DNA of 15,541 nucleotides, from the NCBI GenBank assembly GCA_017379255.1, contig JAFNWZ010000057.1, positions 1-15,541 on the forward strand, given 5' to 3'. Shown one piece after another: positions 5,478 through 15,541 of the stretch (its first letter is position 1; each line of letters opens with the position of its first letter). The translations under genes were made by a program, and so were the position numbers. Origin of the DNA: Akkermansia sp. GTDB taxonomy: Bacteria > Verrucomicrobiota > Verrucomicrobiia > Verrucomicrobiales > Akkermansiaceae. The notes beneath the pieces were generated by a model. It made no database searches and was not told where the DNA came from. It worked only from the letters and a program-made list of their open reading frames with translations.

Positions 5478-5867
5478 TTACTTGCGGGCAGCTTTTTCGC
5501 CGTCCTCGATGAATTTCCAGAACGTGCGGGACTTGCCCAGCTTGCGGTCTTCACTGTCGGAACCCATGCCGCTGCGGAAGAAGAAGTCCTTAAGCGTATC
5601 GGCATGCAACACGCGCTGCACCACCACCACGTTGTCGCCGTCCTCATTCTGCTCCACGGTGAAGTAGATGCGGTAGTCATCATCATCCGAACGGAAGCGG
5701 AAGATGCGGCGGCCGTCGCGTTCCAATACGCCAAAACGGGGGTCGGTCGGGGTGCCATTCAGGCAGCCTTCATCCACCTTGAAGGAGAAGAAAAGCTTCA
5801 GCTGCTTCATGGCGGGAATGGCAGATACTTCTGCCGCACTGATTTCATTGAAAGCGATTTGTTGCAC
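5478..5867 (-). CDS. RelE/ParE-like small protein, no antitoxin seen (129 aa)
   Basis: The central part, RRIFRFRSDDDDYRIYFTVEQ followed by VVVVQRVLHADTLKDFFFR (about 53-95), follows the beta-strand order of the RelE/ParE fold: a basic strand, a YRI.Y strand, then a strand ending in a V.H.. motif. The N-terminal extension and the C-terminal tail (DRKLGKSRTFWKFIEDGEKAARK) are not typical. No antitoxin gene lies next to it, so a housekeeping or regulatory role is as likely as a toxin. The start is GTG at 5867; the only internal ATG (residue 20, MKQLKLFFSF) is an alternative start. It is the first gene of the run leading to ribE, with 12 nt to the ABC permease. A possible promoter is at 5896-5925. 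Confidence 0.6.
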   Translation of the reverse strand: MQQIAFNEISAAEVSAIPAMKQLKLFFSFKVDEGCLNGTPTDPRFGVLERDGRRIFRFRSDDDDYRIYFTVEQNEDGDNVVVVQRVLHADTLKDFFFRSGMGSDSEDRKLGKSRTFWKFIEDGEKAARK

Positions 5868-5959: not shown

Positions 5960-6703
5960 TTAATAATCAATCGGTTTCCCGTTGCGGCGCCGCATGCCCT
6001 GCTTCATCTGCTCCTGCATGTGGAGCCACTGGGGTGTGCCCTTTGCTTCCGGCGTGTGGCTGAACACGTAGTCGTTATAACGGGTGCTGCGGCGTATCAT
6101 AGCCCAGTGCTCCAGCGGGAGTCTGTGCCCTTCCGGGTAAATGAGGTTCAGCGCCCGGGCCATGGCGGGGGTGTCCACCCATTCATCGCCCTGCCAGTCT
6201 TCGATGATGTGGGTGCGACCGGCATAGCGCCAGACCTCGAGCAGCACGGCCTTGGGCCACTTCTCGTGGCGGGAGGTGATGTAGACCACATGGTGCTCGC
6301 TGCCGGAGGCGGCATCGCGCACGCAGCACCCCAGGCGGAAATATTGCAGGGGACGGCGGCGCAGCTCGCGGTAGAGGTCATGCTGGTAGTGCCAGCAGAG
6401 CCCGCGGTGGCGCCAGTGGTTGCGGGTGTTCACGGTGCGGTTGTTGAACCAGCCGGCCAGGATGGGGTCATTGTACCGGGCAATGGCTGCCCCGCCTGCC
6501 ACAGCAGTGTGTGCCAGCCAGGCGGCTTCCTGGCGGGCGGCTTTCCTCTCATGCTCCGGCAGAAGCTGCAGCAGTTGCTGCTGGATGCCATGCTGCCGTT
6601 CTACGACAGCGGGCTCTTTTTCGTACCCGGGTCGGGGGGCGCTCTGGCAGGCTATGTGCAGCAGCGGCAGCAGCAGCAGAATGAGGCAGCGGAGTACGTT
6701 CAT
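5960..6703 (-). CDS. Putative lipoprotein, Cys-His-Glu papain/transglutaminase-like core, paralogue A (247 aa)
   Basis: The N-terminus MNVLRCLILLLLPLLHIAC is a signal peptide with a weak lipobox (Cys19; His at -3 is unusual). The protein shares long blocks with its upstream neighbour: RGLCWxYQHDxYRELRRRPLxYFRxGCCVRD, SEHxxVY, and EGHxxPxEHW. The spacing Cys103 - 34 residues - His137 - 19 residues - Glu156, with the Cys at a helix start and the His and acid in strand-like segments, is what papain-fold transglutaminase-like enzymes show. Here the third residue is Glu (LLEVW) where the paralogue has Asp. No family name is recognised, so the enzyme idea is inference from spacing. The ATG follows the upstream stop codon by one base (TGA-G-ATG), so the pair is translationally coupled. 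No clear terminator follows. Confidence 0.75.
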   Translation of the reverse strand: MNVLRCLILLLLPLLHIACQSAPRPGYEKEPAVVERQHGIQQQLLQLLPEHERKAARQEAAWLAHTAVAGGAAIARYNDPILAGWFNNRTVNTRNHWRHRGLCWHYQHDLYRELRRRPLQYFRLGCCVRDAASGSEHHVVYITSRHEKWPKAVLLEVWRYAGRTHIIEDWQGDEWVDTPAMARALNLIYPEGHRLPLEHWAMIRRSTRYNDYVFSHTPEAKGTPQWLHMQEQMKQGMRRRNGKPIDY

Positions 6704-6704
6704 C

Positions 6705-7451
6705 TCAATAATTGGTCAGCAGTCCGGGGTGTTCTTTCTTACCCTGCAGGATGTTGTTGTACATGCGGCGGTACTGAGGAGAACGCCGCATCTCCGGCAT
6801 CCAGTACCCTTCGTAGTCGCCATCGGCCCCGCGCAGCACGCTCCAGTGCTCCATGGGCCACTGGTGCCCCTCCTGGTAGTAGATGGCCTGCACGCGGCAG
6901 ATGCCAGGCAGATCTGCCCAGCGGGTGGGGCTGAGCTTGCGGGCATCATCCACCTTCAGGCGGCCATTCCACATCCAGGCATCCAGCACCCAGGCCTGCG
7001 GCCAGGCTGCACTCCTGGGCGCCACGTACACGCAGTTGTGCTCAGAGGCTTTGCCGCCGTCTCGCACGCAGCAGCCAATGCGGAAGTAATTCAACGGCCG
7101 CCGGCGTAACTCGCGGTACATGTCGTGCTGGTATTGCCAGCAGAGTCCGCGGTCCTGCAGGCGGGCATTGATGAGCGCATTGCCCGCCCAGCCCGGGAAG
7201 CAGGAGCCGTTGATTCGCGCAATGCCGGCGGCGGCCTTGTACGCCGTGTCAGCCAGCCAGGTGGCTTCCTCGTGCGCGGCAAACTGTTCCTGCTGCTCCA
7301 GCGGCAGCAGCGCCACCAGATTATCCTTGAGCTGCACGCGGCGCCTGGTCACAAATTCGGTATAGGGGTATTGCACCGAGGGGGGGTAGCACGATGTCAC
7401 CCCAAGCAGCACCAGCAGCATCAGGCATATCTGTTCCAGTTTCTTGACCAT
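6705..7451 (-). CDS. Putative lipoprotein, Cys-His-Asp papain/transglutaminase-like core, paralogue B (248 aa)
   Basis: From ATG 7451 the protein starts MVKKLEQICLMLLVLLGVTSC, a classic lipoprotein signal with lipobox Cys21. The open frame extends upstream to 7502. An ATG at 7475 has a good GGGGGAG 10 nt ahead, but a promoter (-10 TAGAAT at 7474-7479) overlaps it, so 7451 is preferred. It is a tandem paralogue of the next gene. Candidate triad: Cys104 (RGLCW), His138 (SEHNCVY) and Asp157 (WVLDAW, very like the LDxW of transglutaminase-like domains). The double-Cys motif GCCVRD is also conserved. It is probably anchored in the envelope. A parS-like site lies upstream (7532-7547). Confidence 0.78.
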   Translation of the reverse strand: MVKKLEQICLMLLVLLGVTSCYPPSVQYPYTEFVTRRRVQLKDNLVALLPLEQQEQFAAHEEATWLADTAYKAAAGIARINGSCFPGWAGNALINARLQDRGLCWQYQHDMYRELRRRPLNYFRIGCCVRDGGKASEHNCVYVAPRSAAWPQAWVLDAWMWNGRLKVDDARKLSPTRWADLPGICRVQAIYYQEGHQWPMEHWSVLRGADGDYEGYWMPEMRRSPQYRRMYNNILQGKKEHPGLLTNY

Positions 7452-7473
7452 GTTCCGTAAAAAAGGGAGGCGC

Positions 7474-7502
7474 ATTCTACAGTATCTCCCCCTGCTCCGC
7501 AA
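7474..7502 (-). promoter_or_regulatory. Promoter of the tandem lipoprotein pair
   Basis: TTGCGG (7497-7502) and TAGAAT (7474-7479) on the minus strand have a 17-nt spacer. The -10 is identical to that of argS. The predicted start is about 15 nt before ATG 7451. The -10 overlaps the alternative ATG at 7475, which argues against that start. Confidence 0.5.
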
Positions 7503-7531: not shown

Positions 7532-7547
7532 TGTTCCATGTGGAACA
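7532..7547. other. parS: parS-like site 1
   Basis: TGTTCCATGTGGAACA differs at one central base from the perfect parS palindrome TGTTCCACGTGGAACA used by Pseudomonas ParB. Its complement is identical to the sites at 10257 and 14116. It lies between the ribD stop codon and the lipoprotein promoter. Confidence 0.7.
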
Positions 7548-7552
7548 TTCGT

Positions 7553-8590
7553 TTACCCCAGTGTACCGCGTATAATTATATCTCTTTCACATTCAATAAG
7601 TTCCTCGCGCTGAAAAATAAATTCCTGCGGCAGGAAGTCTCCGGGTACCACATGGTCCGGCCCTGCACCCACCATGGGAGAGATGCTCTGCATCCACTCA
7701 TTCACAAGCCCTTCTTCCAGGAACCGGCGCAGGAGCTTTCCGCCGCATTCGAGCATCAGGTTCACAATACCGTACCGCGTATAAAGCTCATTCAGCAGGC
7801 CGCGCAGGTCGCGCACGTCTTCCCACACCAGGGTGCGCTTGTGGTATTTGTCAGAAAAGAGCTTGGCCATCGGCGGCAGGGAGAGCATGTTATTGGTGAG
7901 CACGATGCGCCAGGGTTGTTCCTTGCGCGGTGAGGGTGTTTTCAGCGGGGTGCGGATGGTCAGCTGCGGATCATCGGTGCGCAGCGTGTTACCGCCAATG
8001 AGGATGGCATCGCTCTCCAGCCGCAGCTGGTGGGCATATTGCAGGGTCTTCACCCCGCTCAGCCAGAAACTCTGCCGCCGGGTCATGCGTCCATCAAGTG
8101 TGGTGGCCACCTTGGCAGTGACCCACGGCCGCCCGGTCATGACGGCATGGAACCAGGAACGCAGGAAACGGTCACAGGCGGCCTTGCACACGCCCGGGCA
8201 CACTTCTATCCCCGCGGCGCGTAAAAGCGCGTCTGCGCGGCCCTGGTGGCGCATATCGGGGTCTGTGGAGCCATAGACCACACGCGCGAGGCCGGCTTCA
8301 ATGATGGCATCGGTGCAAGCGGGTGTGCGGCCCACGGTGGAGCATGGTTCCAGGGTCACGTAAATGGTGGCGCCTTTCATGAGGCCGGCATTTCCGCGGG
8401 AGCGCGCATCGGCAATGGCCCGGCGCTCGGCATGGGCCTCCCCTGCCTTTTCGTGGAATCCCTGTCCCAGGAGTGCACCATTGCGCACGATAACGGCACC
8501 TACAGGGGGATTAGGACTGGTAAGTCCCAATCCCATGCGCGCCTGCTCCAGCGCACATTGCATCCATTTTGTATCTTCCTGCTCCTGCAT
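7553..8590 (-). CDS. ribD: Bifunctional riboflavin deaminase/reductase RibD (345 aa)
   Basis: The enzyme carries out the second and third steps of the GTP branch of riboflavin synthesis: deamination of the diaminopyrimidine phosphoribosyl intermediate, then NADPH-dependent reduction of the ribosyl chain. The N-terminal deaminase has SPNPPVGAVIV (25-35), the zinc/proton-shuttle motif HAE (53-55) and YVTLEPCSTVGRTPAC (77-92) with both zinc cysteines; the usual His after PCS is Thr here. The C-terminal reductase starts near 155 with RPWVTAKVATTLDGRM (154-169), GGNTLRTDDPQLTIR (199-213) and LECGGKLLRRFLEEGLVNE. The ATG at 8590 lies 7 nt after a -10 box, so the mRNA is predicted to be leaderless, leaving no room for an FMN riboswitch. 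ribE is 5.4 kb downstream on the same strand, outside any obvious shared operon. Confidence 0.95.
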   Translation of the reverse strand: MQEQEDTKWMQCALEQARMGLGLTSPNPPVGAVIVRNGALLGQGFHEKAGEAHAERRAIADARSRGNAGLMKGATIYVTLEPCSTVGRTPACTDAIIEAGLARVVYGSTDPDMRHQGRADALLRAAGIEVCPGVCKAACDRFLRSWFHAVMTGRPWVTAKVATTLDGRMTRRQSFWLSGVKTLQYAHQLRLESDAILIGGNTLRTDDPQLTIRTPLKTPSPRKEQPWRIVLTNNMLSLPPMAKLFSDKYHKRTLVWEDVRDLRGLLNELYTRYGIVNLMLECGGKLLRRFLEEGLVNEWMQSISPMVGAGPDHVVPGDFLPQEFIFQREELIECERDIIIRGTLG

Positions 8591-8597
8591 GCAGGCT

Positions 8598-8625
8598 ATT
8601 GTATCAGCAGTTAGGCAGCTGTCAA
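8598..8625 (-). promoter_or_regulatory. ribD promoter
   Basis: TTGACA (8620-8625) and TACAAT (8598-8603) on the minus strand have a 16-nt spacer. The -10 ends 7 nt before ATG 8590, so transcription should start at or one base before the A of the start codon. Confidence 0.7.
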
Positions 8626-8898
8626 GATGAGCCCCCGGGTACTGACTATCTTTCTGTGATTGAATGATGCTATTATAGTATATTCAGAAACTCATCATCA
8701 TCTACCCTGTGAATAAGTGGATAAGTTTACCAGGCTGTTTATGGTTAATGTTTTATATAAGATGCTACCTGTTGACAACCTGGTTGAGAACCTCGCTCCC
8801 GGCGGTGAAGAAAACTTATCGACAGAGTTAAGAACCGCTTATTCACATACTTATTAACCATTTTTGTGAATAAGTATGTTAAAGTGTTTATGATGAGT
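8626..8898. other. oriC: Candidate replication origin (oriC) with DnaA-box cluster
   Basis: The gap has no gene. Within 166 bp there are three exact TTATTCACA boxes, matching the DnaA consensus TTATNCACA: 8708-8716 (minus), 8839-8847 (plus) and 8865-8873 (minus). Two more are one base from TTATCCACA: 8716-8724 (minus) and 8816-8824 (plus, TTATCGACA). AT-rich stretches lie at about 8658-8690 and 8737-8762, as expected of a duplex-unwinding element. An 11-bp inverted repeat (8845-8855 / 8869-8879) overlaps the right-hand boxes. Four parS-like sites surround the locus within about 5.5 kb. Against the call: no dnaA, dnaN, rpmH or gidA nearby, and genes on both sides run leftward. Box sequences are seen; function is inference. 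Confidence 0.5.
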
Positions 8899-9558
8899 TT
8901 ATTGAGCTTCTTCCGGCTGGGCGGTCTGGGTGGTCTCGGAAGACTGCGGCCCGAGGAGGATGCTGCCCGGCAGGTCAATCGCAATGGCGCTGAGGCCAGC
9001 CAGCGGGTACATGTAAACCGCGCTGAAATCAGCCGTCATTTCGCCAACACGGGCAAGCAGATAGCTCCGGCCGTCATTTTTCAGCAGGCGGTGGGAGGAC
9101 ATGTTGCGGAAGAAGGAAGGAGCTTCGGCTTTTGTGGTCTGTTCCTTTACTTCACCCTCCGGGAGGTGATTGCTCCACTTTCGGTTGATGAAGCTGATGG
9201 CATCGGAGTGGCTGTACTTGCCTTCCTTGAGGCTCTTGACCATGTTTTCGGGTACTTCAGCGTAACGGGGTTCAAACTCATCTTCATCCACGATGACGCT
9301 GTAGCGTTCCGGGTGTTCTTTTTCGACCTCGTTCTTGACGGGCTGGATGCAGGGAACGTTACTGCGCCGAACCTGGGCCTTGTATCCTTTCATGTACCAC
9401 TGGCCATTCACCTTGCAGAGTGTGGGGGTCTCCAGAGGCAGCAGAATGGCATCGCCGCTGCGGGCGGTGTCGGCTATGACCTCGTGCGTGCGCACGCTGC
9501 AGGAAACGCCAGCAAGAGCCAGCAGGGCTGTAAGGGTGTAATATGAAATCTTCTTCAT
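8899..9558 (-). CDS. Small lipoprotein, paralogue of the upstream gene (219 aa)
   Basis: The signal MKKISYYTLTALLALAGVSC has a textbook lipobox (LAGVSC, Cys20), so the protein is probably lipid-anchored in the envelope. The mature part is polar. It shares with its upstream neighbour the pattern PLxxxxLxxxxGQ(W/Y)Y near the N-terminus and, near the C-terminus, a hydrophobic I(A/V)IDxPG(S/T)(I/V)L segment (here AIAIDLPGSILLGP). The C-terminal tail is Gln/Thr/Glu-rich. No known domain is recognised. It starts 19 nt after the stop codon of the neighbour and is probably co-transcribed from the promoter at 10205-10233. It ends at the edge of the candidate oriC, where the inverted repeat has no T-run and so is not an obvious terminator. 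Confidence 0.75.
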   Translation of the reverse strand: MKKISYYTLTALLALAGVSCSVRTHEVIADTARSGDAILLPLETPTLCKVNGQWYMKGYKAQVRRSNVPCIQPVKNEVEKEHPERYSVIVDEDEFEPRYAEVPENMVKSLKEGKYSHSDAISFINRKWSNHLPEGEVKEQTTKAEAPSFFRNMSSHRLLKNDGRSYLLARVGEMTADFSAVYMYPLAGLSAIAIDLPGSILLGPQSSETTQTAQPEEAQ

Positions 9559-9577
9559 GGTGCGTGTCTGGTCGGGG

Positions 9578-10198
9578 TTACTCTTCGGTTAAAAATTGGT
9601 GGAAGAAAACAAAGGGGGCCATGAATGGGATGGCCGCATTGTAGAGAACGGTGCCCGGCCAGTCAATGACGACCTGATCCAGGGTGCTGAGTATGGTGGT
9701 TCCAATGCCGGGGTCTGTGGAGGCTTCCGGGGTTATCCATGTAGTGGAATCGCCCTGCACCGCGGCCTGGATGCGGCACTCTGTTGCGGCGCCGGGTAAA
9801 GTGGCGCTGCACGTGGCAGCGTTGTCCAGCAGTTCGCCTTTCAGTGTCTCGATCTCCACATAGCCATCCTGGCGCTGCATGACTTCACCCGTGCCACGGG
9901 AAATCGGGAAATAGACAGTGGTGTCTTTTCCGCCAGTGCTGGTGTATGTGGGGGCGTTATTCTCGTTCAGGAAAATGGAATCGTGCACGATGGGGTAATG
10001 AATGCGCAGTTGCTGCTGCTCAGCGGCCAGATAATACTGCCCCCCTGCCCTGTACAATTTGAGAGGGGCGACCAGGTGATACCCTGTGTTTTGTCTCCCG
10101 GCTTCCTCTATGTTTTTATGGGTCTGCATGTAGGCGCAAGAGGAAAGAAACGCCATCACTGCCACAAGCCCCGCCTGGGGAATAAACCGATAATTCAT
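9578..10198 (-). CDS. Small lipoprotein (206 aa), first gene of a pair
   Basis: The signal sequence MNYRFIPQAGLVAVMAFLSSC ends in a good lipobox (FLSSC, Cys21). The mature domain starts with helical HKNIEEAGRQNTG, continues with beta-rich sequence (HLVAPLKLYRAGGQYYLAAEQQQLRIHYP), and ends with VVIDWPGTVLYNAAIPFMAPFVFFHQFL, whose hydrophobic tail could be a membrane segment. It is related to the gene that follows it (shared GQ(Y/W)Y and IDxPG blocks). No known family is recognised. The promoter at 10205-10233 places the transcript start at or one base from the ATG, supporting this start and a leaderless mRNA. Confidence 0.75.
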   Translation of the reverse strand: MNYRFIPQAGLVAVMAFLSSCAYMQTHKNIEEAGRQNTGYHLVAPLKLYRAGGQYYLAAEQQQLRIHYPIVHDSIFLNENNAPTYTSTGGKDTTVYFPISRGTGEVMQRQDGYVEIETLKGELLDNAATCSATLPGAATECRIQAAVQGDSTTWITPEASTDPGIGTTILSTLDQVVIDWPGTVLYNAAIPFMAPFVFFHQFLTEE

Positions 10199-10204
10199 GC
10201 GCTT

Positions 10205-10233
10205 AATCTACCATATAAGCTGAACTTTGTAAA
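10205..10233 (-). promoter_or_regulatory. Promoter of the 206/219-aa lipoprotein pair
   Basis: TTTACA (10228-10233) and TAGATT (10205-10210) on the minus strand have a 17-nt spacer. Only 6 nt separate the -10 from ATG 10198, so a leaderless transcript is predicted. A parS-like site lies 23 bp upstream of the -35. Confidence 0.6.
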
Positions 10234-10243
10234 GAAAACCGTG

Positions 10244-10278
10244 AAAATTAAAAGCATGTTCCACATGGAACATGCTTT
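10244..10278 (-). terminator. Possible terminator of the argS-TPR unit, overlapping a parS-like site
   Basis: A perfect 13-bp inverted repeat (10251-10263 / 10266-10278) lies 9 nt after the TPR gene stop codon. Read on the minus strand it ends in TTTTAATTTT, so it has the form of an intrinsic terminator (12-bp stem, 4-nt loop). The core of the same palindrome is the parS-like 16-mer. Confidence 0.6.
10257..10272. other. parS: parS-like site 2
   Basis: TGTTCCACATGGAACA is one base from the perfect palindrome at 13479. The symmetry extends outward to 28 bp (10251-10278), longer than at the other sites, apparently because it doubles as a terminator stem. Confidence 0.65.
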
Positions 10279-10287
10279 CGAGGGATT

Positions 10288-11664
10288 TCACCTGCCGCCG
10301 GCCTGCGGAAGAATGGGCGGAAGCATCCTGGGCTCAGGGGTGTTCAGCAGCGCATCCAGGTGGGGTTGCCAGATGTCGGCGCTGTCTTTGTAGAGGGCTA
10401 CGCGTGCCCTGAACAAGGCAGCTGCGCAGGCACGCTCAGCGCGGATATAGCAGGTGCGTGTGATGCCTCCCATACGCTTCAGCGCTTCTCCTTCGCGCTG
10501 GAGACGCGCAAAGAATTGCTCGGCTTTGGGGAGTTGTTCTGCCGCGCTGGTGGTGCGCCCGCTCTCTGCGAGAGAACGAGTGCGAATGGCAGCCACAAGG
10601 CAGTCCTGCACGAGTTTGAGCGGACTATCCTCTGTTGCGTTGCAGCTCTGGGCTGCCATGTTGATGGCAGCGCCTGCGGGGGGTGTTTCCTGCAGCACCA
10701 GCAGGCGCAGCAGCATGGTGCGCCCCTCCCAGTGCAGCAGGGTTTCAGCATCGCTCGCAGAGGATTTGCCGGCGGCTTCGGTGCTGAGCTGGCGGGCTGC
10801 CTTGAGGGCTTGCACCCACTGCTTTTTATCGCCGCTCTGCACCCACACAGCTATCTGGTAAAGCCGGGCGGCCATGTACGCTTCTGTTGTGGGTCCAGTG
10901 TTTCGCAGGATGGCCTGGAAATGCGGCATGGCCTGGGGCGCTTTCCCGCTGCGGAAAAGGAGATGCCCTGCCAGCTGGTGAATGAGGGGATGCGGTGCCC
11001 GCTTCGAGAGTTGCGCGGCCTTTTCGGCGGCTGATATGGCTTGTTCGGAGGGGCTTTCGGAGCACTCCTCCACCAGGGCGCGGAGGTAGTGCGCCAGCGG
11101 GGAATCCTGCAGGCGCGCCTGCAGGGCATCTGCCCTTTTCAGGAGGCTATCCCCCTGCTCCCCTGCCTGGTGGTTCAGCACAATATCCCAGCAGGCGGCC
11201 ATATTGTCCCGGCGGTAGCGTGCGGCACGCTCCTTAAAGGCTTGTGCAGCCCCGGCATAATCACCATTCAGGTATTGCAGAAACGTGGCCAGGTACCATT
11301 CTTCAACCGGAGTGAGCACGGCATCCTGGATGCTGTTGTTGAGTTGCTGCAAGTGCTGGCGGTATGCCTCGCTGCGCAGGGGATGAATCATCATCATGCC
11401 GATGTGGGCCAGAATGCAATCTGGTTCTTCACGCAGCGCTTCTGCAAAGTGGTTATAGGCGCTTTCGTTGCAGCCATAAAGGCACTCTTTCAAGCCCAGA
11501 TTCACCAGGCGCTGGACTTCTGCGTCCGGGGTGGACAATGCCAGCTGCACGGCCGGATTCTCGTGAGTGAAAAAGTTGCCCTTATCAGAAAGTTTATCCT
11601 CTGCCCAGCAGATGCTTGCTGCCAGGCAGAGGATAATGGAAGTGGCGTTGTTCATGGGTGTCAT
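10288..11664 (-). CDS. Secreted or periplasmic TPR-repeat protein (458 aa)
   Basis: The N-terminus MTPMNNATSIILCLAASICWAED is a signal peptide with a likely cleavage at CWA-ED; the second Met (residue 4) could also be the start. The rest is alpha-helical with TPR-like pairs: LGLKECLYGCNESAYNHFAEALREEPDCILAHIGMMM (about 56-92), YLATFLQYLNGDYAGAAQAFKERAARY, and HLLFRSGKAPQAMPHFQAIL. The second half is degenerate and may be a tetratricopeptide-like solenoid. It ends in a Pro-rich tail. The ATG overlaps the argS stop codon by one base (TAATG), implying translational coupling with argS, though no functional link to tRNA charging is evident. The palindrome at 10251-10278 probably ends the transcript. 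Confidence 0.75.
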   Translation of the reverse strand: MTPMNNATSIILCLAASICWAEDKLSDKGNFFTHENPAVQLALSTPDAEVQRLVNLGLKECLYGCNESAYNHFAEALREEPDCILAHIGMMMIHPLRSEAYRQHLQQLNNSIQDAVLTPVEEWYLATFLQYLNGDYAGAAQAFKERAARYRRDNMAACWDIVLNHQAGEQGDSLLKRADALQARLQDSPLAHYLRALVEECSESPSEQAISAAEKAAQLSKRAPHPLIHQLAGHLLFRSGKAPQAMPHFQAILRNTGPTTEAYMAARLYQIAVWVQSGDKKQWVQALKAARQLSTEAAGKSSASDAETLLHWEGRTMLLRLLVLQETPPAGAAINMAAQSCNATEDSPLKLVQDCLVAAIRTRSLAESGRTTSAAEQLPKAEQFFARLQREGEALKRMGGITRTCYIRAERACAAALFRARVALYKDSADIWQPHLDALLNTPEPRMLPPILPQAGGR

Positions 11665-13418
11665 TACATACGCTCCGGCATCGTGATACCGAAGAGTCCC
11701 ATACCTTTCTTGAGCACGCTGGCGGTCAACTCGCAGAGGGCAAGACGCGTTTCGCGGGTAGCGCCTTCGCTCTTGAGAACCGGGCAGGCTTCGTAGAAGC
11801 TGTGGAATGCCTTGGCGAGCTCGTAGAGGTAAGCTGCCAGCAGGTTCGGTCGGCAGTCGTCAAGGGTGGCCGGTACAACTTCGGCGAAACGCACCAGAAG
11901 GCGTGCCAGGTTGATTTCGGCATTTTCAGCCAGCGTAAGGGAGGCCGTCGCTACAAAACTGCCCTCTATCTTGCGGAAGATGGAGCGAACGCGCACATAG
12001 GAGTTCTGGAGATACGGCGCAGTATCGCCGGTGAGGGCCAGCATCTTCTCCCAGTCGAAGATATAATCGCTCATGCGGTTCTGGGAAAGCTCTGCAAACT
12101 TGATGGCGCCGATACCCACAGCCTGCGCCACGGCGGCCTTTTCATCGGCCGGCATATCCGGGCTCTTGGCTTCCACCACGGCTGTGGCGCGGGTCACGGC
12201 CTCATCAATCACATCCTGAAGGCTCACGGTATCGCCGGAACGTGTCTTGAACGGGCGACGGTCCTTGCCCAGGATGGAACCAAACGCAACGTGACGGAAA
12301 TCACCTGTTACGCCGCGCATGCGTTCGATGTCGAAAATCTGCTTGAAGTGCTTTTCCTGCGGTGCGCCCACCACGTACCAGATAGCATCTGCCTTGAAGT
12401 TTTCGATGCGGTAATCCAGCGTGGCGAGGTCAGTGGTGGCATACAGGAAACCACCGTCTGCCTTGCGGATAATGGCCGGTACGGCGCACCATTCTCCATC
12501 TTTCTGTACCAGGAACGGGTCATTCTGCGGCTTGTGGAAACCATCGGAGAACACGCAGATGGCGCCATCACTCTCGCGGGCAATCCCCTTCCCTACCAGG
12601 TCTTCCACCAGGGGTGCGAGCGCATCATTATAGGCACTTTCACCCAGCCAGTAATCGAAGGTAATGTCCAGCTGGGAGTAAATCTTCTCCAGACCAATCT
12701 TGGTCACAGCAATGCATTTCTGCCAGATTTCCAGGTTCTCGGTATCGCCGCTCTGGAGCTTCACCAGTTCTTCCTTGCAGAGAGGAAGCAGCTTTTCATC
12801 TTCTTTGCAGCGGGTGTTGACGTCCTTGTAGACGCTGAGAAGTGCCTCAATGGGGTCTTTTTCCAGCTCTGCCTGGTCCAGAATGTTCTTCCAGCCCCAC
12901 AGAATCATGCCAAACTGAGTGCCCCAGTCGCCAATGTGGTTGTCCGTAATCACCTTGTGTCCCAGGAAACGTGCCAGACGTCCCAGAGTGTCGCCAATGA
13001 TGGTGGAGCGGATGTGGCCCACATGCATCGGCTTGGCTACGTTCGGTGCGGAAAAGTCGATGACAATCGATTTGGGTTCATCTACAAGGGATACCCCCAG
13101 TCTCTCATCACCCAGCATCGCGTGTGCGCGCGCGGCAAAGTATTCCGGTTTCACGCGGAAATTGATGAATCCAGGGCCTGCTATCTCAAGTGTGGCTACC
13201 TCGGATTCACCAAATTTCTCAATCACCTCTGTGGCCAAAGCGCGCGGATTCATCTTTGCCTGCTTGGCAAGCATCATGGCTGCGTTGCTCTGGTAGTCGC
13301 CGAATCGTAAATCCTGGGAAGGCGTTACAGTAGGGGTGAAACCTTCAGGAAGTGCCTCACCCAATACTGTGTGCAGCGCCTTTGTCAGCTGCTCTGAGAG
13401 TATCTTTGGTATCGTCAT
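11664..13418 (-). CDS. argS: Arginyl-tRNA synthetase (584 aa)
   Basis: This class I synthetase charges tRNA-Arg with arginine in the cytoplasm. Numbered from ATG 13418, the HIGH motif is HVGH (132-135) within SAPNVAKPMHVGHIRST, followed by DNHIGDWGTQFG. The KMSKS-equivalent loop is FKTRSG (390-395). The N-terminal additional domain (about 1-110) and the C-terminal DALR anticodon-binding domain, ending MGLFGITMPERM, are present. Length matches the family (about 570-590). The reading frame extends upstream to a TTG at 13460, but that codon is part of the -35 box of a near-perfect promoter, so the ATG is the start, with a leader of only about 6-8 nt. It overlaps the TPR gene by one base. A perfect parS site lies just upstream of its promoter. 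Confidence 0.97.
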   Translation of the reverse strand: MTIPKILSEQLTKALHTVLGEALPEGFTPTVTPSQDLRFGDYQSNAAMMLAKQAKMNPRALATEVIEKFGESEVATLEIAGPGFINFRVKPEYFAARAHAMLGDERLGVSLVDEPKSIVIDFSAPNVAKPMHVGHIRSTIIGDTLGRLARFLGHKVITDNHIGDWGTQFGMILWGWKNILDQAELEKDPIEALLSVYKDVNTRCKEDEKLLPLCKEELVKLQSGDTENLEIWQKCIAVTKIGLEKIYSQLDITFDYWLGESAYNDALAPLVEDLVGKGIARESDGAICVFSDGFHKPQNDPFLVQKDGEWCAVPAIIRKADGGFLYATTDLATLDYRIENFKADAIWYVVGAPQEKHFKQIFDIERMRGVTGDFRHVAFGSILGKDRRPFKTRSGDTVSLQDVIDEAVTRATAVVEAKSPDMPADEKAAVAQAVGIGAIKFAELSQNRMSDYIFDWEKMLALTGDTAPYLQNSYVRVRSIFRKIEGSFVATASLTLAENAEINLARLLVRFAEVVPATLDDCRPNLLAAYLYELAKAFHSFYEACPVLKSEGATRETRLALCELTASVLKKGMGLFGITMPERM

Positions 13419-13431
13419 ATTGCTGGCCAGG

Positions 13432-13460
13432 ATTCTACACTCTTTGCCTTCTTTTGTCAA
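13432..13460 (-). promoter_or_regulatory. argS promoter
   Basis: TTGACA (13455-13460) and TAGAAT (13432-13437) on the minus strand have the ideal 17-nt spacer. The predicted start is near 13425, 6-8 nt before the ATG at 13418. The promoter overlaps the upstream reading-frame extension and so fixes the start codon. Confidence 0.8.
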
Positions 13461-13478
13461 TGAAATGTACAGTCGTCC

Positions 13479-13494
13479 TGTTCCACGTGGAACA
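13479..13494. other. parS: Perfect parS site (site 3)
   Basis: TGTTCCACGTGGAACA is a perfect 16-bp palindrome, identical to the parS sequence described for Pseudomonas putida and one base from Bacillus subtilis parS. It lies between the argS promoter (18 bp from its -35) and the promoter of the non-coding RNA (19 bp from its -35). Confidence 0.8.
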
Positions 13495-13513
13495 ATTTTG
13501 TTGGTTAAAATTC

Positions 13514-13542
13514 TTGCAAATTCCCCTTCTCTGTGATATATA
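13514..13542 (+). promoter_or_regulatory. Promoter of the structured RNA
   Basis: TTGCAA (13514-13519) and TATATA (13537-13542) have a 17-nt spacer. The predicted start, about 13549, falls at the 5' end of the RNA's closing stem. Confidence 0.6.
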
Positions 13543-13548
13543 CATAAC

Positions 13549-13726
13549 CAGCTGCCGTGCTCGTGACGCGTGGTTTCACAGGCCCGGACCGTTATAGAAA
13601 CACTAGGGGCATTAAAGCTTATATGGGTATTATGTTCCGTCCAATGGATACCTCAGACGACCCAGGCTCCGCACCCACCTGATTACAGGGAACGTGGCTC
13701 TTTTACCACTGACGGCATGGTGGTCA
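13549..13726 (+). ncRNA. ssrS: Structured RNA, probably 6S RNA
   Basis: The RNA is about 178 nt, flanked by a promoter and a strong terminator, with no convincing protein. The ends pair: ACCA (13547-13550) with TGGT (13718-13721) and TGCCGT (13553-13558) with ACGGCA (13712-13717), forming a closing stem. The 3' half holds GCACCCACCT (13671-13680), which overlaps the small hairpin CCTG-ATTA-CAGG (13678-13689). This arrangement is familiar from 6S RNAs of several bacterial groups, where it forms the 3' side of the central bubble that mimics an open promoter and binds sigma70 RNA polymerase. A further helix GGTAT / ATACC lies at the apical end. Family assignment is from remembered motif and size, not a model search. 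Confidence 0.55.
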
Positions 13727-13736
13727 ATTTTTATAG

Positions 13737-13777
13737 AAGCCCTGATTTTCGTTCAAGAAAATCAGGGCTTTTTCTTT
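13737..13777 (+). terminator. Rho-independent terminator of the structured RNA
   Basis: A perfect 14-bp stem (13737-13750 / 13757-13770) with 6-nt loop GTTCAA is followed by TTTTTCTTT. It is about 10 nt after the proposed mature RNA end. Confidence 0.92.
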
Positions 13778-13913
13778 CTGTTCATTCACTGATTGCCAGA
13801 CGTTGCATAGGTGTAAGTACAGTAAATTGTGTAGATTTATAACGCTTTTGACCAGAAAGCATTATAGGTATTTAAGATAAGTTTAATATTTCGAAAAAAA
13901 TTGAAATAGAGGC

Positions 13914-13942
13914 TTGATTCAGAGCGGTTTTGTAAGTATAAT
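13914..13942 (+). promoter_or_regulatory. Promoter of the DUF805 genes
   Basis: TTGATT (13914-13919) and TATAAT (13937-13942) have a 17-nt spacer. Transcription should start near 13949, leaving a leader of about 8 nt with no Shine-Dalgarno. The rest of 13778-13913 is AT-rich, with nothing else recognised. Confidence 0.75.
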
Positions 13943-13956
13943 CTGCCTGTATCATT

Positions 13957-14748
13957 ATGAAAATTTACTATCTGAACAGTGAGAAGAAACCCGTTGGGCC
14001 GCACAGTAAAGAAGAGATTCTCTCCTTGAAAGAAACCGGGTTAATAAATGATGAGACACTTGCCGCCGTAGCTGGGGATAGTAAATGGAAGCCGTTATCG
14101 GAACTGCTCTCGGACTGTTCCACATGGAACACAGCAGAAAATTCCGGAAGCGAAATGAATTTGTGGCAATGTTTTAAAATGGCATTCCAGAAATATGCCG
14201 TATTCAGTGGACGTGCCAGCCGAAAAGAATTCTGGAGTTTTGTTCTTTTTTACATCATATTTAATTATGCGATTCATATTCCCATGAATCTAATGACCCG
14301 GCCAGTCACGGCCGCATACGAAGAAAAAATCAACGCCTGCGCTGATGAAGCTCCGCCTTCTGAAATTTTTGATCTGGTGGTCGAACTTTTGCAAGAGCCG
14401 ACTGTTCTCATTGCAAACGGAATTGGAATTTTCTACTGGCTTGTCATGCTGGTTCCTTTTCTCTCTCTGAGCGTACGCAGACTTCATGATACCGGCACAA
14501 AAGCGTGGGGTGTGATTGTTGGTAGTGTTTCATACATACTGATGATTGCTTCTACTTGTTTGCTGATTAAGTTTGTAATCCAGAATATCGACTTCTTGCA
14601 CTCCAACGTTGAACCGTTGTTTCCTTTAGTAATCAGTCTGGTTGGAGCATTTCTTTGCTTTATAGCTATCAGTATTTACTTGTTTATCAAAATGCTGCTT
14701 CCTGGTAACAAGGGTGAAAACAAGTATGGCGCCGAACCGAGAAACTGA
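13957..14748 (+). CDS. GYF_2-DUF805 inner-membrane protein (263 aa)
   Basis: Residues 1-50 (MKIYYLNSEKKPVGPHSKEEILSL...GDSKWKPLSEL) form a GYF_2-type domain, a small fold common at the N-terminus of membrane proteins in this group. After a polar linker, a DUF805 domain starts with the typical FSGRASRKEFWSFVLFYIIF (about 86-105) and has the hallmark VRRLHDTG (174-181). About four hydrophobic segments are visible, the last (CFIAISIYLFIKMLLPG) followed by the common ending GENKYG. DUF805 has no established biochemical role. The promoter at 13914-13942 gives a near-leaderless mRNA. A second DUF805 gene follows immediately. A parS-like 16-mer is embedded in the linker codons (STWNT). Confidence 0.9.
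   Translation: MKIYYLNSEKKPVGPHSKEEILSLKETGLINDETLAAVAGDSKWKPLSELLSDCSTWNTAENSGSEMNLWQCFKMAFQKYAVFSGRASRKEFWSFVLFYIIFNYAIHIPMNLMTRPVTAAYEEKINACADEAPPSEIFDLVVELLQEPTVLIANGIGIFYWLVMLVPFLSLSVRRLHDTGTKAWGVIVGSVSYILMIASTCLLIKFVIQNIDFLHSNVEPLFPLVISLVGAFLCFIAISIYLFIKMLLPGNKGENKYGAEPRN
14116..14131. other. parS: parS-like site 4, inside a coding sequence
   Basis: TGTTCCACATGGAACA is the same 16-mer as at 10257. It lies in the linker between the GYF_2 and DUF805 domains, where sequence constraint on the protein is low. Confidence 0.65.
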
Positions 14749-14749
14749 T

Positions 14750-15541
14750 ATGAGTTTGATGTCCGAAGATATGGCAGGGCAGGGGAGTGTACCCCCTGTG
14801 CCTGCTTTTAATATTCCGTGCGAAAAATGTAAAGCGGAAGTTTCCCTGGTAGATGGACAGATTCCGGTAACTTGCCCGCATTGCGGTTACCATCTTCGTC
14901 CACGGTCGGATTCAATGTGGAATCATTTTCTTTTCGTGCTTCGCTACCGTTATCTTGTCTGGCGAGGTAGAGCGACCCGAAAAGAATTCTGGAGTTTCAA
15001 TTTGTTCTCTTATATCATCTGGTTCTTGTTCCTGATTGGAATCTGCATGGTGATTGATTCCACAGTTCCAGAGTGTTCCTGTCCGGTAGGTCATTTAGGT
15101 GCTTTCGTGGTGGCATTGTGTTGCGCCCTTGTTGTGTATATTCCCTTAATTGCGATTCCTCAGACTTTTCTCATTGCGCGCCGTTTGCATGATATTGGCA
15201 TAAGTGGAATCACTGTTATTATTCAACTGGTTCTTGTAGCTCTTGTGTGTGGAGCCTTCATCTCAATTTTCTCAATCAAAGCAGTTGAGGAATATCCGAC
15301 TCACTCTTCAATAGTGACGGTTGATAATGAGGAAAATTCTGATGAACTTATCCATATTGTTGATGATGAGCTTGTGCATCCCCTTGATTTATCTGCTGAA
15401 AACGAACTCGCGATCACCGCGTTGTTCCGCGTACTGATGGAAGAGATCCCCGCCGACAGCGGCTCGTTTAAATGGGGCGGCACTACATCGCAGTCGTATT
15501 TCCCGAAAGACAACTCCGATTTCTTCGACGGTTGCGACCTC
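14750..15541 (+). CDS. Zinc-ribbon DUF805 membrane protein with long C-terminal extension, partial at 3' end
   Basis: The frame stays open to the window edge, so the C-terminus is missing. ATG 14750 follows the previous stop by one base (TGATATG); an in-frame ATG at 14726 would overlap the upstream gene, and ATGs at 14759 and 14771 are also possible. Numbered from 14750, CEKC (24-27) and CPHC (42-45) form a four-cysteine zinc ribbon. A DUF805 domain follows, with WRGRATRKEFWSF (71-83) and ARRLHDIG (143-150). About three membrane segments end near 176. Beyond this lies an acidic linker (VDNEENSDELIHIVDDEL) and a hydrophilic segment from about 217 (NELAITALFRVLMEEIP...) of GC-richer codon use that I do not recognise. 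With the previous gene it forms a tandem DUF805 pair with different N-terminal sensor-like domains. Confidence 0.85.
   Translation, partial: MSLMSEDMAGQGSVPPVPAFNIPCEKCKAEVSLVDGQIPVTCPHCGYHLRPRSDSMWNHFLFVLRYRYLVWRGRATRKEFWSFNLFSYIIWFLFLIGICMVIDSTVPECSCPVGHLGAFVVALCCALVVYIPLIAIPQTFLIARRLHDIGISGITVIIQLVLVALVCGAFISIFSIKAVEEYPTHSSIVTVDNEENSDELIHIVDDELVHPLDLSAENELAITALFRVLMEEIPADSGSFKWGGTTSQSYFPKDNSDFFDGCDL

What the first reader, a model, noticed from the sequence alone, without database searches (positions are those of the whole stretch)
7532..14131. Cluster of four parS-like centromere sites in 6.6 kb
Seen: TGTTCCACGTGGAACA at 13479, and the one-off variant TGTTCCACATGGAACA (either orientation) at 7532, 10257 and 14116. 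With equal base frequencies, about 0.0002 sites with at most one mismatch would be expected in a window this size. Known: this 16-mer is the ParB-binding parS of Pseudomonas, close to that of Bacillus, and parS clusters mark the origin region. Inference: this is the chromosomal centromere of a PVC-group bacterium, with no parAB next to it.
Basis: partly seen in the sequence, partly recalled or inferred. Interest (0 to 1): 0.85.

Follow-up and report, generated by a model that had tools for sequence, protein, structure and literature searches.

The report
Chromosome centromere and replication origin, Akkermansia
This stretch of a gut Akkermansia genome carries the DNA sites by which the chromosome is probably grasped and pulled apart at cell division, next to a likely start point of DNA copying, in a group of bacteria where the partner genes lie far away and a usual helper machine (the SMC condensin) was not found.

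Summary
Confirmed, and the inference largely holds. The four sites exist and are the only matches with up to 2 mismatches in the held 2.5-Mb assembly. The window is an Akkermansia (Verrucomicrobiota) contig. In three single-contig genomes of the genus the same 16-mer lies at the negative-to-positive GC-skew switch, far from dnaA (0.97-1.23 Mb), parB (0.81-1.40 Mb) and the best ParA candidate. In two of them the cumulative-skew minimum falls 0.1 and 0.5 kb from a DnaA-box cluster upstream of ribD. The window carries such a cluster too (8708-8873), between parS sites at 7532 and 10257, so it very probably holds oriC as well. The assembly encodes one full-score ParB, of the parS-binding type. SMC and ScpB were not found in 58 of 58 Akkermansia genomes, but in 34 and 33 of 36 genomes of other genera. 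A published Hi-C study already used parS and skew to place the A. muciniphila origin and found no condensin there (PMC10197239). New as far as my searches reach: oriC beside ribD, its rearrangement between clades, genus-wide lack of SMC-ScpB hits, and frequent off-palindrome centres.

The parts
7532..7547 (.). parS-like site, TGTTCCATGTGGAACA (1 mismatch, at the palindrome centre), intergenic, beside the 3' end of ribD
10257..10272 (.). parS-like site, TGTTCCACATGGAACA (1 mismatch, centre), intergenic
13479..13494 (.). parS-like site, exact TGTTCCACGTGGAACA, just upstream of argS
14116..14131 (.). parS-like site, TGTTCCACATGGAACA (1 mismatch, centre), inside the DUF805 ORF (reads C-S-T-W-N-T in frame)
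8591..8898 (.). putative oriC: intergenic region upstream of ribD with three DnaA boxes (8708-8716 and 8865-8873 on the - strand, 8839-8847 on the + strand)
8690..8703 (-). GAT repeat following the ribD-proximal DnaA box; adenines at 3-base spacing invariant in the Akkermansia origins that I aligned
7553..8590 (-). ribD; next to the DnaA-box cluster here and in the three single-contig Akkermansia genomes
11664..13460 (-). argS; 51 of 80 argS loci fetched have at least one parS-like site near it
13957..14748 (+). GYF_2/DUF805 membrane protein ORF that contains the fourth site

Best explanation
The four sites are the chromosomal parS centromere of an Akkermansia, lying around and beside its replication origin (oriC, upstream of ribD). 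Proposed mechanism: dimeric ParB, encoded elsewhere on the chromosome, nucleates at each parS, closes into a CTP-dependent clamp, slides out over the neighbouring kilobases and forms a partition complex that also covers oriC; ParA, also encoded elsewhere, then draws the two newly copied origin regions apart. Since no SMC or ScpB was found, the complex would act without the usual ParB-loaded condensin. Shown by sequence: the sites, their clustering, co-location with the skew switch and DnaA boxes in relatives, the ParB type, the distance of dnaA, parB and the ParA candidate in relatives, the lack of SMC/ScpB hits. Inferred from the known ParABS mechanism (PMC7333895, passages): binding, clamp sliding, ParA-driven movement.
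For: Sites and chance. Sites near argS in 51 of 80 argS loci. In 13 genomes listed in full (six of them picked because their argS locus has sites), all 28 sites with up to 1 mismatch, in 11 genomes, lie at one place per genome. Negative-to-positive skew switch at the sites in G052 (971-977 kb), G004 (1235-1240 kb), G015 (427-433 kb) and, within about 10 kb, in G063 of another family. Cumulative-skew minima near the box cluster: G052 0.1 kb, G004 0.5 kb, G099 0.7 kb. At least 2 TTATNCACA boxes within 450 bp upstream of ribD in 33 of 44 distinct loci (36 of 47 before removing three duplicates) against 1.7% of 9,400 random windows of the same loci. mnmG, holA and dnaN at the same place in G052 (families confirmed) and by homology in G004. 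Own ParB matches solved Spo0J/ParB and has the R173 and G201 equivalents of parS-binding ParB (rule from PMC7383237; residues placed by my own counting).
Against: No binding or replication experiment. The window contig (15.5 kb) cannot show its own skew switch, and its near relative G098:C24 has its minimum at 10.3 kb, far from its sites at 46-56 kb. G015's minimum is shallow and 7.6 kb from the boxes, G097's 5 kb. Of 44 distinct ribD loci 9 have no TTATNCACA box upstream and 2 have one; in argS loci L091, L092 and L097 (21-22 kb) no ribD is seen at all. G044 and G100 have no site with up to 1 mismatch, G005 none with up to 2. 106 of 193 distinct sites have an off-palindrome CA/TG centre, which I recall as uncommon in known parS. 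The 20-kb stretches at the sites of six genomes of other families hold no DnaA-box cluster (one single box in one), and of the five draft ones only G061 shows a negative-to-positive change there.
Confidence: 0.92

Rival explanations
1. Operators of a transcription factor: the palindromes are binding sites of a regulator of ribD, argS and neighbours.
For: Three of four sites are intergenic and one lies just upstream of argS.
Against: One site is inside a coding sequence. Site numbers and positions change between relatives. In G052 and G004, and in 6 of 6 genomes of other families that I examined (of 36 available), the same 16-mer sits at mnmG instead, and in the four single-contig genomes it is at or within about 10 kb of the skew switch. 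A regulon is not expected to follow the origin.
Confidence: 0.03
2. Nucleoid-occlusion (Noc-type) binding sites rather than parS.
For: The own ParB scores 226 bits against the NCBIfam Noc model, more than against the general ParB domain model (175 bits); Noc chains are among the best solved matches.
Against: 226 bits is below the Noc cut-off of 315. The protein has R and G at the two positions that separate ParB from Noc, and its two best solved matches are Spo0J/ParB. NBS differs from parS at two half-site positions (PMC7383237 passages), and these sites carry the parS letters.
Confidence: 0.02
3. The cluster is a real parS cluster, but replication starts elsewhere nearby and the DnaA-box run upstream of ribD is not oriC.
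For: 11 of 44 ribD loci have fewer than two boxes; the skew minima of G015, G097 and G098 are 7.6, 5 and over 40 kb from the boxes.
Against: In G052 and G004 the minimum lies within 0.1 and 0.5 kb of the boxes, and the boxes keep their place beside ribD in loci whose other neighbours (argS or mnmG) differ.
Confidence: 0.12

Closest known systems
Chromosomal ParABS centromere (parS) of the Bacillus, Pseudomonas and Caulobacter type
   Same: 16-bp palindrome of the TGTTNCACGTGNAACA type (consensus recalled and as printed in PMC10197239), several copies in a few kb at the origin, a chromosomal ParB with parS-type recognition residues
   Different: in relatives dnaA, parB and the ParA candidate lie far from the sites, and parA and parB far from each other; SMC and ScpB not found; the central CG is often CA or TG
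parS cluster and origin of Akkermansia muciniphila YL44 (PMC10197239; passages read)
   Same: clustered parS with GC skew and read coverage used to place the origin; the paper notes over its 12 genomes that the origin does not always go with dnaA, and reports no known condensin in A. muciniphila
   Different: one strain there; here a different clade with the sites at argS and ribD, up to eight sites per locus, the DnaA boxes, and SMC/ScpB tested over 58 genomes
oriC with a basal unwinding system (DnaA boxes, spacer, DnaA-trios; PMC8287927, passages read)
   Same: DnaA box, short spacer, then a trinucleotide repeat with adenines at 3-base spacing
   Different: the conserved adenines are on the strand that reads 5'-TTATTCACA-3', whereas published trios (3'-GAT-5', on a 5' tail next to the boxes) are, as I read those passages, on the other strand

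Membership tests
chromosomal parS (ParABS) | 16-bp palindrome matching the parS consensus | tested here: met
   three of the four window sites differ by one base, at the centre
chromosomal parS (ParABS) | clustered at one place of the genome, not scattered | tested here: met
   4 of 4 in 6.6 kb; 28 of 28 sites with up to 1 mismatch, 11 of 13 genomes; G044 and G100 have none
chromosomal parS (ParABS) | located at the replication origin (skew minimum) | tested here: met
   met in single-contig relatives G052, G004, G015 and within about 10 kb in G063; not testable on the window's own contig; not resolved in G098:C24
chromosomal parS (ParABS) | genome encodes a ParB with parS-type recognition residues | tested here: met
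   one ParB above the cut-off, with R173 and G201 equivalents (placed by counting)
chromosomal parS (ParABS) | genome encodes a ParA | tested here: inconclusive
   the AAA_31 hit ends 14 bases from a contig end in the window's assembly; near-complete hits in 5 of 5 relatives searched; that these are ParA rests on being the best hit
chromosomal parS (ParABS) | parAB operon close to parS (usual, not universal; recalled) | tested here: not met
   parB 0.81, 0.98 and 1.40 Mb from the sites in G052, G004, G015; ParA candidate 58, 86 and 367 kb from parB; no parA on the own 12.9-kb parB contig
chromosomal parS (ParABS) | ParB binds the sites | not testable with these tools
   needs ChIP or in vitro binding
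ParB-loaded SMC-ScpAB condensin | SMC and ScpB genes present | tested here: not met
   0 of 58 Akkermansia for ScpB, 0 of 58 above cut-off for SMC (57 of 58 have weak hits, best 55.8 bits against a cut-off of 567; 6 candidates scored per genome); 33 and 34 of 36 genomes of other genera. ScpA, MukBEF, MksBEF not searched
bacterial oriC | cluster of DnaA boxes at the skew minimum | tested here: met
   sharp in G052 and G004, within 1 kb in G099, 5-8 kb off in G097 and G015, not in G098; the window's own skew not testable
basal unwinding system (DnaA-trios) | 3'-GAT-5' trios next to a DnaA box, on the 5'-tail strand | tested here: inconclusive
   periodic adenines are on the box strand; by eye the window's other strand still fits the paper's loose rule (three NAN), that of G052 does not

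The most novel reading that the evidence does not exclude
Akkermansia segregates its chromosome with a condensin-free ParABS: ParB clamps on a cluster that in one clade has grown to several, often asymmetric (CACATG-centred) parS sites around a ribD-linked oriC, with dnaA, parA and parB all unlinked from it, and with a DnaA-trio-like element on the opposite strand from the known one.
Probability: 0.3. Interest if true: 0.72.

Novelty: new variant of a known kind. Interest (0 to 1): 0.52.

Why it matters
It places the origin and centromere of a much-studied gut genus next to ribD and argS or mnmG rather than at dnaA, which matters for anyone who takes dnaA as the origin, for example in growth-rate estimates from read coverage (general knowledge; PMC10197239 gives a like warning). 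It also offers a natural test of what ParB-parS does without SMC-ScpAB: the genus keeps, and in one clade multiplies, its parS sites although SMC and ScpB were not found. Whether ParB accepts the off-palindrome centre is directly testable in vitro.

Tried and rejected
Rejected: chance or a longer repeat family; transcription-factor operators; Noc sites; a mobile or plasmid centromere (neighbours are housekeeping genes, and in relatives the sites are at the chromosomal skew switch). No tRNA in the window. The window's skew profile is mostly weakly positive and uninformative at this length. Centre orientation: in argS-oriented loci with at least 3 sites, left half TG 32 / CA 10, right half TG 19 / CA 36 (Fisher p = 8e-5); the loci are related and the split is by cluster midpoint, not oriC, so I draw no conclusion.

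Limits of counts: the listing was truncated, so site positions come and the listed part; at 2 mismatches the reversed-pattern control also gives hits in many genomes (up to 8). The near-invariant core is partly built in, since sites were picked with up to 2 mismatches. In one search only 6 first-look candidates per genome were scored. L093 was dropped because its upstream region is cut off; L160, L165 and L170 duplicate L084, L056 and L065 there. The loci aligned (9 and 12 rows, the window in both) were chosen because they have box clusters. The six outgroup genomes were chosen from 36 for having few contigs. 'Single-contig' genomes are taken to be complete circles, which was not tested.
Full report
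OBSERVATION. No other match with up to 3 mismatches exists in the window, and 0 of 200 shuffles reach four. In the held assembly (2.515 Mb, 457 contigs, 90% complete) they are the only matches with up to 2 mismatches; the reversed control gives none. Three sites are intergenic; the one at 14116 is inside a GYF_2/DUF805 ORF.

WHOSE GENOME. argS of the window is 99% identical to that of an Akkermansia MAG from water buffalo caecum, and the next loci are Akkermansia MAGs, many from ruminants and other herbivores. Neighbours are ribE, a putative Na+/H+ antiporter, ribD and argS.

CONSERVATION. Of 80 argS loci fetched, 51 carry at least one site with up to 2 mismatches and 29 carry none. The 51 have argS at least 73% identical to the window's and are titled Akkermansia, Akkermansiaceae or uncultured bacteria; they include A. 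glycaniphila (L108). The 29 are six loci with argS 70-72% identical (L098-L101, L104, L105; three titled A. muciniphila) and 23 more distant ones (57-61%). Site number per locus varies from one to eight, and positions shift between relatives. Among 193 distinct contexts (window included) 87 have the CACATG and 68 the CACGTG form of the otherwise exact 16-mer; counting all forms, 106 have a CA/TG centre, 82 a CG centre and 5 a TA centre, and the flanks are little conserved beyond two A/T-rich positions on each side. The up-to-2-mismatch filter makes part of this core conservation automatic. In 13 genomes listed in full (six picked because their argS locus has sites), all 28 sites with up to 1 mismatch, found in 11 genomes, lie at one place per genome (G015 has just one such site, with a 2-mismatch site 6 kb away). 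G044 and G100 have none: G100 has four 2-mismatch sites around argS, G044 a single 2-mismatch hit. G005 (80% complete) has no site with up to 2 mismatches.

ORIGIN. In three single-contig Akkermansia genomes the GC skew turns from negative to positive at the sites: G052 at 971-977 kb of 2.650 Mb, G004 at 1235-1240 kb of 3.176 Mb and G015 at 427-433 kb of 3.497 Mb; the opposite switch lies roughly half a genome away. Skew was sampled in twenty 20-kb stretches per genome, not over the whole sequence. Along the circle dnaA is 0.97, 1.23 and 1.12 Mb from the sites, parB 0.81, 0.98 and 1.40 Mb, and the best ParA-type hit 0.87, 1.06 and 1.73 Mb; that hit and parB are 58, 86 and 367 kb apart. In the window's assembly no parA was found on the 12.9-kb contig that holds parB, and the ParA-type hit is cut by a contig end. 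Long contigs of window-like relatives: G097:C3 and G099:C66 change sign near their clusters; G098:C24, the closest of the three, does not.

oriC. A scan for DnaA boxes and gene mapping showed a box cluster directly upstream of ribD: window 8708, 8839 and 8865, in the 308-bp gap between ribD and the next ORF, with parS sites on both sides. The cumulative-skew minimum is 0.1 kb (G052), 0.5 kb (G004) and 0.7 kb (G099) from that cluster, but 5 kb in G097, 7.6 kb in G015 (shallow minimum) and over 40 kb in G098. At least two TTATNCACA boxes occur within 450 bp upstream of ribD in 36 of 47 loci, or 33 of 44 after removing three duplicates; 2 of 44 have one and 9 of 44 none; 1.7% of 9,400 random windows of the same loci reach two. 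In some argS loci (for example L091, L092, L097) no ribD lies within the stretch held, so the argS-ribD link is not universal.

REARRANGEMENT. G052 carries holA, mnmG, ribD, boxes and dnaN together, with one site inside mnmG and one just after dnaN; G004 has the same gene set by homology, and G015 all of it but dnaN. G013 (contig of the same length and site positions as A. glycaniphila Pyt, L108) has sites near argS and inside mnmG, with one DnaA box and ribD in between; its 5-kb skew goes from -0.11 to +0.25 there, though it dips again at 35-40 kb. So the argS side and the mnmG side look like two flanks of one older origin region; the window's clade keeps argS beside oriC (mnmG was found in 1 of 100 stretches examined, 27 kb from the nearest site in G097) and G052 and G004 keep mnmG. 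In six genomes from other families, 6 of 6 have one site inside mnmG and one just outside it, 0.8-1.0 kb apart. In the single-contig one, G063, the skew minimum is 8 kb from the nearest site, dnaA-dnaN are 0.48 Mb and parB 1.50 Mb away. In the other five the sites, dnaA and parB lie on different contigs; only G061 shows a negative-to-positive change in the 20 kb around the sites, and no DnaA-box cluster was seen in any of the six stretches. That an mnmG-parS origin unlinked from dnaA and parB is older than Akkermansia is therefore a suggestion resting on one genome for the distances. It is not phylum-wide: in Methylacidiphilum infernorum the origin was mapped 250 nt upstream of dnaA (PMC2474590, passage).

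ParB. The assembly has one ParB above the family cut-off, and 58 of 59 genus genomes searched have one or more. It aligns with Spo0J/ParB of known structure and keeps the GERR and ENLQR motifs (their role in CTP binding is recalled). It has R and G at the two positions that are conserved in ParB and changed in Noc (PMC7383237, passages); I placed these residues by counting along the aligned helix-turn-helix.

CONDENSIN. ScpB (PF04079) was found in 0 of 58 Akkermansia and 33 of 36 genomes of other genera; SMC (TIGR02168 above cut-off) in 0 of 58 and 34 of 36. 57 of 58 Akkermansia do have weak matches to the SMC model (best 55.8 bits, cut-off 567), which I take for other coiled-coil proteins but did not examine. 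G067 and G082, one other genus, lack both, which suggests a second loss. PMC10197239 (passages read) reports no known condensin in A. muciniphila YL44, a barely visible secondary Hi-C diagonal, and parS clusters used with GC skew to place origins.

MECHANISM. Best reading: ParB clamps nucleate at the parS cluster, spread over the oriC region and are moved by ParA. Steps after site recognition are inferred from ParABS in general (PMC7333895, passages). Without SMC, several sites would serve to build a larger partition complex rather than to load condensin; this is inference.

NOVELTY. Searches of the held open-access library for Akkermansia with parS and ParB, with dnaA, GC skew and origin of replication, with oriC and DnaA box, and with condensin and SMC, and for Verrucomicrobia with parS and ParB and with SMC, ScpB and chromosome segregation listed few papers; of these I looked into passages of three and found only PMC10197239 directly relevant. 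Subscription papers were not searchable.

Noticed in passing
window 8690-8703 (- strand): GAT repeat after the ribD-proximal DnaA box; adenines at three-base spacing invariant in alignments of 9 and 12 chosen Akkermansia origins, on the strand opposite to published DnaA-trios as I read them.
   Followed up: partly
L053-L132, parS centres: Orientation of CA/TG-centred sites differs between left and right halves of the cluster; not corrected for relatedness.
   Followed up: partly
window 5960-6703 and 6705-7502: Two neighbouring related ORFs, apparently a tandem duplication (repeats D1 and D4; cross-matches), lipoprotein-like by eye.
   Followed up: no
window 14215-14240 and 14972-14997: 26-nt repeat, 92% alike; perhaps a second DUF805-type ORF begins near the window's end.
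   Followed up: no
window 5478-5867 (- strand): Small ORF with a sub-threshold ParE_toxin Pfam match (E = 7e-4, 20.6 bits against a cut-off of 23).
   Followed up: no
G067 and G082 (another family, genus g9): No ScpB hit and no SMC hit above cut-off: a possible independent loss of condensin in the order.
   Followed up: no
G044:C5:73316-73331 and 78655-80031: The only hit with up to 2 mismatches in this 82%-complete genome lies 5.3 kb from dnaA; probably chance, but it is the one case seen near dnaA.
   Followed up: no
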